DNA from: Paenisporosarcina antarctica
Lineage (GTDB): Bacteria; Bacillota; Bacilli; Bacillales_A; Planococcaceae
DNA: 64,000 nt
Assembly (NCBI RefSeq): GCF_004367585.1
Contig: NZ_CP038015.1
Span: forward strand, 2,982,001-3,046,000
Reading direction: 5' to 3'
Shown: positions 17,610-19,655 of the stretch, in pieces
Numbering within the stretch: position 1 is the stretch's first letter
Layout: the number at the start of each line of letters is the position of its first letter
Program-made: the position numbers and the translations under genes
Notes under the pieces: model-generated
Told to the model about the DNA's origin: nothing
What the model saw: only the letters and a program-made list of their open reading frames with translations
Databases searched by the model: none

Positions 17610-17805
17610 ACAAGAAAAACCGGGCAAAATACGCCCGGTCCTTTAAGAAATTACAGATGATTTAAGTATCAGTTTAAAAGGATATTCCATACAGCATCAA
17701 CTTTGATTTCCGGGTCGCTTAGGACGGCAATCTTCTACACTATAACCTGAAGAATAAGACAGCCTTCTATTTAAGTCTAGTGATTTCCTTTTCAGGCGGA
17801 CGCTT
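17610..17805. repeat. Dispersed repeat family A, copy 1, left part (interrupted by IS110)
   Basis: It begins with the hairpin ACCGGGC-N7-GCCCGGT (17619-17639), continues through a segment shared with 53537-53605, and ends with CAGGCGGACGCTT. The continuation TTTCCGCGGGCGG is found at 19488, beyond the IS element. On the minus strand the hairpin is followed by T5 and may act as a terminator. Confidence 0.85.
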
Positions 17806-18007
17806 TCTTACCACTAGTCAAGAGTTTTCCCATTTCTTTTTCAGAAAAAAATAGTGAAAATGAAATAGTAAGCGGTTGACTTCTGTTCCGTCGCTTGTTA
17901 AAAGATATTTGGCTTCACTATACCCTCAGAAATCATGATTTAACACACGGAACCGAAAAAATAAGCATAGTAAATAAACCTCACGATTTCTGTTTTTTTC
18001 GCAGGGG

Positions 18008-19252
18008 CTATTGTGCTATAGTTAGAGGAATCGTGTTACGAAACACTGCTGATTCGTACCGGTACAGGATGCCATTTTGGATAAGGTGAAATGCAACTTT
18101 CAAGAACTTATTCATACAGGCAATCATCGCAACCTTATGGAGCTTTCCATTGGGTTGCTTTTTTAATTTGTCGTAATAATCCACAATCGTATTTTGGGTC
18201 TTTGCCCGCAAGGAGATCATAGACCTGACCATTTGGAACAGGATTTTGCGCAGTCTTCTGTTTCCTCTTTTATTGATTTTATCCTGATGTTGGAGTTTGC
18301 CTGATTGATACCGTTGGATATCGATTCCTGCGTACGCATTGATTTGTTTCGAATTTTGAAAACGACGGATGTCACCTAACTCGCCAAGGATTTGAACGGC
18401 GGTGTTTTCACCGATTCCTGGAAAGGATTTGAGCACTTGAAATTCCACTCGATCTTTGGAAAGGTCGACCATCTGTTTGATGATTTCCTTTTTTTGAACC
18501 CGTAGTTCCTGAATGCGTTTGGCATATTGCTTCAAATGTTGACATCGCACATCTTTCGGTCCAATAGCCGAGTAGGAATTTTTAACAGCCATGAGAAGTA
18601 AAGTTGCTTTCTCTTCCGCTTGTTTGGCAGATAAGTTTTTGCGTGTTGCACGTTTGATTTGATCGCATAACTCCTCATTTGACAGTCCTCCTAAATAGGC
18701 CGGGTGCGGGAAGAGCTTCACGATATTTAAGAACAAAATGGAACTCTTCGAAAACACTTTTTCGAGCGTTGGAAAGCTCAACTGTAGGAAAGCGTGCAAC
18801 CGATTAGAATGTTGACCGAGTTCTTTTTCAATATCCTCATAGTAGCGTCCCAACGCACGCATCTGTTCATAGTAGTCTTCTTGAATGTAGGTTTCTGGAC
18901 GATCAATCCTAAAATGCGACCTGGCCAGTTCATGGGCATCACCGATATCCGTTTTCTGCCTGCGCATGGAGGCGGTTTGGAGTTTAGCCTCTAATGGATT
19001 GAGCCGGCTGTAAGGATACTGGTGTTCCTGAAGAAACTTCTCAAGACCTTGCGAATAGACACCTGTAGCTTCGAAAACAATTTCTGGAACCTGACCATCC
19101 TGTTCCGTTAAAGAATCAATGCGTTCTTTTAGCGATTGGAAACCGGTAAGAGTATGTTCCAATTCCCCTTCATACCTGCAGTGTTGATTGTGATCGTAGA
19201 GGACCATAGTGCTTTTTCCCATACTGACATCAAAAGCGATGACGTGTTTCAT
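18008..19252 (-). CDS. IS110-family transposase (DEDD recombinase)
   Basis: The product is 414 residues from ATG 19252 with AGGAGGAG just upstream; an ATG 18 bases earlier sits before the ribosome site. The RuvC-like N-terminal domain contains D8, E61, D102 and D105 (FDVSMGKS, FEATGVY, TDIGDAHELA). A helical middle region (about 130-265) follows. The C-terminal Transposase_20 domain (about 272-360) contains the candidate catalytic serine S318 in RYQSGK. IS110 recombinases use a bridge RNA to join donor and target. The frame is intact, so the element may be active. Confidence 0.95.
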   Translation of the reverse strand: MKHVIAFDVSMGKSTMVLYDHNQHCRYEGELEHTLTGFQSLKERIDSLTEQDGQVPEIVFEATGVYSQGLEKFLQEHQYPYSRLNPLEAKLQTASMRRQKTDIGDAHELARSHFRIDRPETYIQEDYYEQMRALGRYYEDIEKELGQHSNRLHAFLQLSFPTLEKVFSKSSILFLNIVKLFPHPAYLGGLSNEELCDQIKRATRKNLSAKQAEEKATLLLMAVKNSYSAIGPKDVRCQHLKQYAKRIQELRVQKKEIIKQMVDLSKDRVEFQVLKSFPGIGENTAVQILGELGDIRRFQNSKQINAYAGIDIQRYQSGKLQHQDKINKRGNRRLRKILFQMVRSMISLRAKTQNTIVDYYDKLKKQPNGKLHKVAMIACMNKFLKVAFHLIQNGILYRYESAVFRNTIPLTIAQ

Positions 19253-19294
19253 ACTTCTCCTCCTGTTCATTCTTCATAGAAGTCCATCACAGTG

Positions 19295-19430
19295 CCTTAT
19301 TGATTCCACTTTCTTATACACGGTCTCGAGGACCCAACATACTAAACTGATTCTTATAAGGGTGTGAAGTGAGTCGGTTTCCTGATTCGGATTCTCAGAT
19401 CCCAGCGTCCGCTCGACTTCCCTTCACTTC
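19295..19430 (-). ncRNA. Predicted bridge RNA of the IS110 element
   Basis: On the transposase strand two stem-bounded loops occur in the order known for IS621. Target loop: stem GTGAAG..AGTCG with CGACT..CTTCAC (19364-19427), inner hairpin GGAT/ATCC (19389-19402), left guide GCGGACGCT (19412-19404) and right guide GGAAA (19382-19378). Donor loop: stem CCTTAT/ATAAGG (19361-19295), inner hairpin GGTC/GACC (19322-19334), left guide TTAGTATGTT (19345-19336) and right guide TAAGAAA (19316-19310). Each guide matches the corresponding junction arm. Exact transcript ends are unknown. Confidence 0.78.
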
Positions 19431-19433
19431 TAC

Positions 19434-19476
19434 AAAAAAATAGTAGCACAAACCATGGCCTTGGTCTGTGCTACTA
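19434..19476 (-). terminator. Subterminal hairpin with T-tract at the left end of IS110
   Basis: On the minus strand TAGTAGCACAGACCA pairs with TGGTTTGTGCTACTA and is followed by T7. It could stop transcription entering the element from outside, or be the 5' stem-loop of the bridge RNA. Confidence 0.65.
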
Positions 19477-19487
19477 ATGTTAGTATG

Positions 19488-19655
19488 TTTCCGCGGGCGG
19501 TGCGTGAGTCTCCTCGTCGTTTGAAAAACCTATGCTCCTGCGGTTACTCGTCGCAAACGAATTGTGTACAATTCGTTTCCTGCGGGGTCTCACCTGGACT
19601 CGCTTTCCCGTTGGAGTCGCCGCCTTCCACTACAATCATTCACCTGTTTACAAAT
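19488..19655. repeat. Dispersed repeat family A, copy 1, right part
   Basis: TTTCCGCGGGCGGTGCG through CTCCTGCGGTTACTCGTCG and GGAGTCGCCGCCTTCCACT is the missing right half of the copy that starts at 17610. It matches 33985-34175 closely. Confidence 0.85.

What the first reader, a model, noticed from the sequence alone, without database searches (positions are those of the whole stretch)
19295..19491. Bridge RNA of an IS110 element readable from sequence, with all four guides matching the junctions
Seen: the transposase-strand leader forms two stem-bounded loops. Target loop: left guide GCGGACGCT (19412-19404) equals the plus strand left of the insertion (17796-17804); right guide GGAAA (19382-19378) is the complement of TTTCC at 19488-19492. 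Donor loop: left guide TTAGTATGTT (19345-19336) equals the element end 19480-19489; right guide TAAGAAA (19316-19310) is the complement of 17804-17810. That is 31 guide bases in the order and polarity expected from the IS621 bridge RNA model (established). The core is inferred to be TT. The transposase is intact with DEDD and Ser318, so this could be an active programmable recombinase of a new specificity.
Basis: partly seen in the sequence, partly recalled or inferred. Interest (0 to 1): 0.88.

Follow-up and report, generated by a model that had tools for sequence, protein, structure and literature searches.

The report
Bridge-RNA insertion element with inverted guide polarity
This is a mobile DNA element whose own small RNA matches both its insertion site and its own ends, as in the known bridge-RNA elements, except that here, and in its close relatives, the RNA reads the DNA in the opposite orientation to the best-studied example.

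Summary
The element is a 1,684-bp IS110-group IS with an intact DEDD/Ser transposase and an upstream bridge RNA (bRNA). The genome holds three copies, 0 mismatches over 1,685 bp, in a palindromic repeat whose empty copies are also present. The two-loop fold is supported: 22 of 43 predicted pairs have compensatory changes in 30 sequences. Guides track targets: of 74 insertions given to the test 73 were scored; the 5' target guide fits the reverse complement of the flank at the transposase's 3' side with at most 2 of 9 mismatches in 61, and the other flank in 0; 0 of 10,000 permutations do as well.

In IS621, and in a roughly 30%-identity group (16 of 17), the 5' guide equals the flank beside the bRNA. 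Here both loops are inverted relative to the bRNA/transposase strand, as reported for IS1111 seekRNAs (PMC11187229), although the RNA sits upstream as in IS110. My searches found no description of this combination: a new variant of a known kind. Activity is inferred, not shown.

The parts
17804..19487 (-). IS110-group insertion sequence, 1,684 bp counting one copy of the shared core
   Evidence: Three genomic copies, 0 of 1,685 mismatches in each of the two others, flanks diverge here; uninterrupted sites GCGGACGCTTTCCGC present
17804..17807 (.). left copy of the 4-bp junction repeat TTTC (minimal core TT)
   Evidence: TT is the least shared by the relatives' junctions (reading)
19488..19491 (.). 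right copy of the junction repeat TTTC (minimal core TT)
18008..19252 (-). DEDD/Ser RNA-guided transposase, 414 aa (an in-frame ATG at 19270 would give 420 aa)
   Evidence: NCBIfam NF033542 211 bits, cut-off 140; Pfam DEDD_Tnp_IS110 and Transposase_20; D8 E61 D102 D105 S317 align with IS621 positions recalled as catalytic
19253..19475 (-). predicted bridge RNA region (ends approximate)
   Evidence: 19271-19475 folds with z -3.77; consensus structure with 22 of 43 pairs showing changes on both sides; no Rfam match
19441..19476 (-). 5' stem-loop of the RNA, followed by a run of U (terminator-like)
19404..19412 (-). 5' target guide GCGGACGCT (long guide)
   Evidence: exact match to plus 17796-17804; follows the flank in relatives
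19378..19382 (-). 3' target guide GGAAA (short guide)
   Evidence: complement of 19488-19492; GG in the rows with a CGGAA flank, A/T in the others (reading; one clade-wide change, no statistics)
19336..19345 (-). 5' donor guide TTAGTATGTT
   Evidence: equals plus 19480-19489
19310..19316 (-). 3' donor guide TAAGAAA
   Evidence: complement of 17804-17810; AAG/AGG change goes with RE-end change GTAAGAA/GTAGGAA in some relatives
17816..17821 (-). -35-like TTGACT in the right end (RE)
   Evidence: conserved in relatives; 17 nt from TAACAT once the ends abut in the circle (counted)
19477..19482 (-). -10-like TAACAT in the left end (LE)
   Evidence: as above; promoter is predicted, not shown
17796..17803 (+). 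target flank GCGGACGC at the transposase's 3' side, part of a genomic palindromic repeat
19492..19500 (+). target flank on the bRNA side (CGCGGGCGG), other half of the repeat

Best explanation
An IS110-group element moved by a DEDD/Ser recombinase that carries its own bispecific bridge RNA. Inferred cycle: excision joins RE to LE, which makes a promoter (TTGACT-17-TAACAT) that drives the RNA; the RNA folds into a 5' hairpin, a target loop and a donor loop; the target loop pairs with GCGGACGC-TT-TCC in a genomic palindromic repeat and the donor loop with TTAGTATG-TT-TCTTA at the element's joined ends; strands are exchanged at the TT core. The RNA is encoded upstream of the transposase, as in IS110/IS621, but its guides read the DNA with inverted polarity: the long 5' target guide specifies the flank at the transposase's 3' side, and the 5' donor guide specifies the LE end, both read on the strand opposite to the bRNA/transposase. 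Shown here: sequence matches, fold, guide-target covariation, some donor covariation, polarity, empty sites. Inferred: expression, RNA-protein binding, recombination.
For: Exact guides; three identical copies and empty sites; IS621 control reads the other way; 52-element match test; 31 distinct leader regions, 0 of 5,000 permutations as good; 73 of 74 insertions scored, 61 with at most 2 of 9 mismatches, other flank 0 of 73, 0 of 10,000 permutations; roughly 30%-identity group 16 of 17 at most 2 mismatches in IS621 polarity and 0 of 17 inverted; donor RE-end change GTAAGAA to GTAGGAA accompanied by RNA TATAAGAAA to TATAGGAAA, and LE ACAGACTAA with guide TTTAGTCTGT in L035; compensatory changes in the fold; 30 inverted rows one clade, 100/100 (64).
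Against: 12 of 73 insertions have 3 or more mismatches (L029, L039, L042, L059, L064, L066, L135, L136, L144, L147, L149, L151), and most of the divergent families G308, G603, G445, G367 fit poorly (mismatches 3,3,2; 4,2,2; 3,2,5; 1,5). L042 has lost part of its target loop, so its 'guide' is not one (22 real guides, not 23); L070 has no recognisable RE. The LE-flank control was slightly above its shuffles (265 of 5,000 as high). Donor side is thin: L030 has a changed 5' donor guide with an unchanged LE end, L041 a changed RE end with an unchanged guide, L050 and L084 changed 3' donor guides with an unchanged RE end, and in L050, L075, L135, L138, L141, L144, L150 only about 7-8 nt of the 5' donor guide match (71). 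Many relatives' targets are hairpins lying in the RE-side flank, so for those the strand, though not the side, could be read either way. The window's own target is an imperfect palindrome. No expression or activity data.
Confidence: 0.9

Rival explanations
1. Plain IS621-type bridge RNA with ordinary polarity.
For: Order within the RNA, loop layout and guide lengths are as in IS621.
Against: 5' target guide fits the bRNA-side flank with at most 2 mismatches in 0 of 73 insertions, and the opposite flank in 61 of 73; IS621 itself shows the reverse.
Confidence: 0.04
2. The functional RNA is transcribed antisense (plus strand in the window), which would restore the usual polarity.
For: Inverted-repeat stems also fold when reverse-complemented (general knowledge).
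Against: It would put the donor loop before the target loop and the short guide first; the TTGACT-17-TAACAT junction promoter and the 5' hairpin point into the leader on the transposase strand.
Confidence: 0.04
3. The element is a member of the IS1111 group with a displaced noncoding region.
For: Guide order equals that reported for IS1111 seekRNAs (PMC11187229, abstract and sections 6, 12-14 read). In IS4321 the downstream noncoding region holds AAAACGGAA, the reverse complement of the RE-side flank TTCCGTTTT: read by eye; the script's own match lists did not show it because the two copies share their target. PMC11187229 mentions ISMtsp17, an IS1111 relative with an upstream NCR.
Against: In the tree a branch (86/87, not a firm one) sets IS4321 and IS621 apart from the window clade and the other Bacilli rows; I rooted that tree on IS4321 and its deep branches are very long, so this is weak. 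414 aa against 334; no long subterminal inverted repeat seen by eye. NCBIfam NF033542 fits all three proteins and does not discriminate.
Confidence: 0.1
4. Guide-like matches are leftovers of flank capture or chance.
For: In a single case the 5-nt guide could be chance.
Against: Permutation results; long matches fall at one fixed place of a conserved fold.
Confidence: 0.01

Closest known systems
IS621 / IS110-group bridge RNA (PMC11208160, PMC11208158)
   Same: Upstream bRNA, 5' stem-loop, target then donor loop, long 5' and short 3' guides, core inside the guides, circle-junction promoter, DEDD+Ser recombinase, REP-like palindromic targets
   Different: Guides read on the opposite strand relative to bRNA and transposase; TT core, not CT; transposase 414 aa against 326
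IS1111-group seekRNA (PMC11187229; IS4321 in R751)
   Different: RNA is upstream, not downstream, of the transposase; no long subterminal inverted repeats seen; longer transposase
ISEc21 (PMC11187229)
   Same: Upstream NCR, IS110 type
   Different: Order of the two target matches is reversed
IS110 relatives at roughly 28-32% identity in the same bacterial family (L086-L110; in genome G163 beside the inverted kind)
   Same: Similar transposase length, upstream bRNA
   Different: IS621-like polarity: all 17 insertions scored fit the LE-side flank better, 16 of 17 with at most 2 mismatches (L092 and L109 of the 19 had no recognisable LE)

Membership tests
IS110 family RNA-guided transposase | Profile match above curated cut-off | tested here: met
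   NF033542 211.2 bits vs 140; Pfam PF01548 71 vs 29, PF02371 85 vs 21.3
IS110 family RNA-guided transposase | DEDD RuvC residues and C-terminal serine | tested here: met
   D8, E61, D102, D105, S317 aligned with IS621 D11, E60, D102, D105, S241 (IS621 positions recalled)
IS110 group (IS621/ISEc21 type) | Noncoding RNA region upstream of the transposase | tested here: met
IS110 group (IS621/ISEc21 type) | Two internal loops that match target and donor | tested here: met
   (prediction and covariation only)
IS110 group (IS621/ISEc21 type) | 5' guide equals the flank beside the bRNA (bottom-strand match first) | tested here: not met
   0 of 73 insertions at most 2 mismatches; IS621 control meets it
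IS1111 group | Noncoding region downstream of the transposase | tested here: not met
   RNA lies upstream
IS1111 group | Top-strand complement precedes bottom-strand match | tested here: met
   rule from PMC11187229; IS4321 read by eye
IS1111 group | Subterminal inverted repeats of 7-17 bp | tested here: inconclusive
   By eye only: ATTAGT occurs near both ends of many relatives, ACTAGT at the window's RE; no formal test
Bridge-RNA recombinase | RNA expressed, bound and needed for recombination | not testable with these tools
   needs experiment

The most novel reading that the evidence does not exclude
A third architecture of bridge-RNA elements: the bRNA-transposase cassette is inverted relative to the element's donor ends and target, so guide polarity and bRNA position vary independently. 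In the RNA's own frame IS621 is LT-RD-bRNA>-CDS>-LD-RT, IS1111 LT-RD-<bRNA-<CDS-LD-RT, and this clade LT-RD-<CDS-<bRNA-LD-RT. It implies that the recombinase reads only the RNA and that end polarity can flip in evolution without new chemistry.
Probability: 0.65. Interest if true: 0.65.

Novelty: new variant of a known kind. Interest (0 to 1): 0.57.

Why it matters
PMC11187229 ties guide order to the family (IS1111 or IS110) and suggests that the mechanics may differ; PMC11208160 (section 12) suggests that the bRNA moved between ends. A clade with IS110 position and IS1111 order separates the two traits and gives a natural test of whether order matters to the enzyme. It also means that a search which assumes that the 5' guide matches the bRNA-side flank will miss or mis-call targets in this clade. 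The clade supplies 22 natural guide sequences with known insertion sites (23 strings less the deleted one of L042), including two different guides in one genome that fit their own flanks in 8 of 9 (L139) and 9 of 9 bases (L140), useful as natural reprogramming data.

Tried and rejected
Rejected: ordinary IS621 polarity; antisense RNA (loop order, promoter direction); chance (48, 71, 75); known Rfam family (no match at E up to 1). Led nowhere: the sigma-70 scan on the inserted copy found 2 promoter-like sites against a shuffle mean of 3.1, and 3 terminator-like sites against 1.9; fewer promoters is what one expects if the promoter exists only in the circle, but it is no proof. The deep branching of IS621, IS4321 and L158 is unsure (long branches), so I do not claim how often polarity flipped; the rows sampled need 1 change or 2 if IS4321 counts as inverted. 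Tree labels: L152, L158 and L169 were called IS621-like from my reading, not scored; L026 was called inverted from its leader alone (no RE held). G158 copies gave no usable hit. Polarity of the third group (L102, L155, L161, L164, L167) was not determined. Rows dropped: one search dropped L023, L026, L028, L046, L048, L070 (an end missing or cut by the contig) and nine duplicate places; one search was given 74 and dropped L070, and was not given L023, L026, L028, L046, L048, the duplicates, L112-L130, nor places that I never fetched. One search's fixed leader window misses the guide in some divergent rows (L138-L143). The 17-insertion control was scored by a separate few lines (guides of 8 or 9 nt, 0-5 bases from the core). 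Relatives were sought only in the class Bacilli, plasmids (50) and genome contigs (53; 16 loci, not used in the counts). Literature: searches; in what I saw of them there is no statement of an upstream bRNA with inverted guide order. Seen: PMC11208160 abstract, sections 5, 6, 7, 12, 13, 21, end of 43 and passages; PMC11208158 abstract and section 11; PMC11187229 abstract, sections 6, 12, 13, 14 and passages; PMC12045711, PMC12859917 and PMC13264000 passages; PMC1525189 and the rest as listings. Supplements and figures could not be read; the 2026 ISCro4 papers were seen only as a summary.

Full report
Observation. The window's genome (G000, 3.97 Mb) holds three copies of the element; the other two are identical to the window's over 1,685 bp. 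All three sit in a repeated palindromic sequence: the DNA search with element plus flanks listed 52 matches, of which three are the element, one (L017) is a remnant of an RE end, and the other 48 match the flanks only. Uninterrupted copies such as CCGCGGAAAGCGTCCGC are visible in L010 and L016. GCGGACGCTTTCCG occurs 16 times and GGACGCTTTCCG 39 times in the genome, with 0 for the reversed control pattern. Comparison of junctions with empty sites gives a shared TTTC at both ends; relatives narrow it to TT (reading).

RNA. Thirty leaders were aligned, chosen by me from the 32 representatives; L138 and L141 were left out as too divergent. The consensus fold has a 5' hairpin, a target stem-loop and a donor stem-loop; 22 of 43 predicted pairs have at least one sequence with both sides changed and the pair kept. 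In about half of these 22 pairs the changed cells number only 3 or fewer and may be one event (L144, L147 and L150 are close relatives); the target-loop stems are better, with 11 to 13 changed sequences at three pairs. I ran no shuffle control on the pair counts. The window's leader alone folds at -66 kcal/mol, z -3.77, 1 of 200 shuffles as good. No Rfam family matches.

Protein. NCBIfam NF033542 (IS110 family RNA-guided transposase) 211 bits, Pfam DEDD_Tnp_IS110 and Transposase_20. A sequence search of solved structures gave three: ISCro4, IS621 and a third IS110-type protein. The five positions that I recall as catalytic in IS621 are conserved.

Guide-target covariation. Relatives came from whole genomes (76 of 261 genomes of the same family at E up to 1e-30, 72 of 398 of the class at 1e-25); I fetched most of the multi-copy families. 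Ends are conserved (LE ACATACTAA, RE GTAAGAA or GTAGGAA in nearly all rows) while flanks differ by subfamily. The 5' target guide changes with the flank: for example GCGGACGCT, GGGAGTTTT, GGCAGTTTT, GAGGTGCCA, ATAGCCTTT, CTAGCCTCT. Of 74 insertions given to, 73 were scored (23 guide strings, one of them the deleted loop of L042): mismatches to the reverse-complemented RE-side flank were 0 in 27, 1 in 24, 2 in 10 and 3 or more in 12; to the LE-side flank 4 or more in all 73. The mean per guide was 1.41 against 3.83 (sd 0.23) when guides were permuted, 0 of 10,000 as low. The comparison lets the guide end 0-4 bases from the core, because target T-runs vary in length. A guide-free test agrees, as does one on 31 distinct leader regions (6.92 against 4.53, 0 of 5,000); there the LE-flank control was 3.90 against 3.72, with 265 of 5,000 shuffles as high.

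Polarity. In IS621 (L051), read on the sequences printed, the leader's ATCGGGCCT faces TATCAGGCCT on the same strand beside LE, and its ACAGTATC faces ACAGTATCT at RE. In the window clade the corresponding guides face the other side and strand: 5' target guide = reverse complement of the RE-side flank, 5' donor guide = reverse complement of the LE end, 3' donor guide = RE end on the same strand. A group at roughly 28-32% identity, in the same bacterial family and in G163 in the same genome, shows IS621 polarity: 16 of 17 insertions at most 2 mismatches to the LE-side flank, 0 of 17 to the other. The 30 rows labelled inverted form one clade, support 100/100. The clade reaches down to about 36-40% identity (G475, G603, G445, G367): G475 fits well (2, 1, 1 mismatches), the other three less well. 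Reported IS1111 order (PMC11187229) is the inverted one, and IS4321 in R751 agrees when read by eye, but there the RNA lies downstream. A tree with IS4321 keeps the window clade as one group (100/100) that does not join IS4321, with the warning that the deep branches are very long and the root was my choice.

Mechanism. RE ends carry TTGAC[AT] and LE starts carry TAA[CG]AT; in the window they would stand 17 nt apart once the ends abut, reading into the leader. This is the kind of circle-junction promoter described for IS621 and ISEc21 (PMC11208160 section 5, PMC11187229 section 12). Thus the transcription logic is that of IS110 while the donor and target code is read from the other strand. Donor covariation is present but thin: GTAAGAA/TATAAGAAA versus GTAGGAA/TATAGGAAA, and ACAGACTAA/TTTAGTCTGT in L035; L030, L041, L050 and L084 show changes on one side only.

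Targets. By eye, guides of the clade point to one arm of palindromic repeats or terminator-like hairpins next to a T-run (flanks), in keeping with IS110 insertion in REP sequences (PMC11208160 section 5; PMC1525189 seen as a search listing only).

Limits. No expression or activity data. Sampling is confined to Bacilli. The claim that the combination is undescribed rests on searches of an open-licence library and on the parts of main texts named in Tried and rejected; PMC11187229 mentions exceptions in NCR position (for example ISMtsp17), whose guide order is not given in the sections I read.

Noticed in passing
L102-L104, L155-L157, L164-L168: A separate IS110-like group (about 26-28% identity) begins GGAGCATTCCTG; in L102-L104 it ends ...AGAGGGAGG a few bases before a start codon, and L155, L156 and L168 look similar. 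It may insert within Shine-Dalgarno sequences and leave one behind; L164-L166 do not show this on the right side.
   Followed up: no
window 19441-19476 and following T-run; also L086-L110 leaders: The 5' hairpin of the leader is followed by a run of T and looks like an intrinsic terminator at the very start of the RNA; seen in both polarity groups. It may insulate the inserted copy from outside transcription.
   Followed up: partly
L138-L140 (one genome): Copies in one genome carry different 5' target guides (TCAGCCTCT and TCAGTCTCT); L139 fits its own flank in 8 of 9 bases and L140 in 9 of 9: natural reprogramming within one genome.
   Followed up: partly
L077-L079, L080-L083, L075-L076, L050: Several subfamilies seem to target the arm and T-run of what look like transcription terminators (read by eye).
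   Followed up: no
L042: Copy with a deletion in the target loop, a stop in the transposase and no guide match: a decayed element.
   Followed up: no
L017 1501-1556: A remnant of an RE end of a related element (93% over 56 bases) stands alone in the window's genome.
   Followed up: no
plasmid hits: Transposases at about 35-36% identity are common on plasmids of Lactiplantibacillus, Lacticaseibacillus, Staphylococcus and Streptococcus; their guide polarity was not tested.
   Followed up: no
G000, flanks of window 17700-17807 and 19489-19597: Mosaic palindromic repeat family in the host genome with GGACGC-TTT-CCG and GGACGC-GTT-CCG variants; the junctions of all three IS copies fit the TTT variant.
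   Followed up: partly
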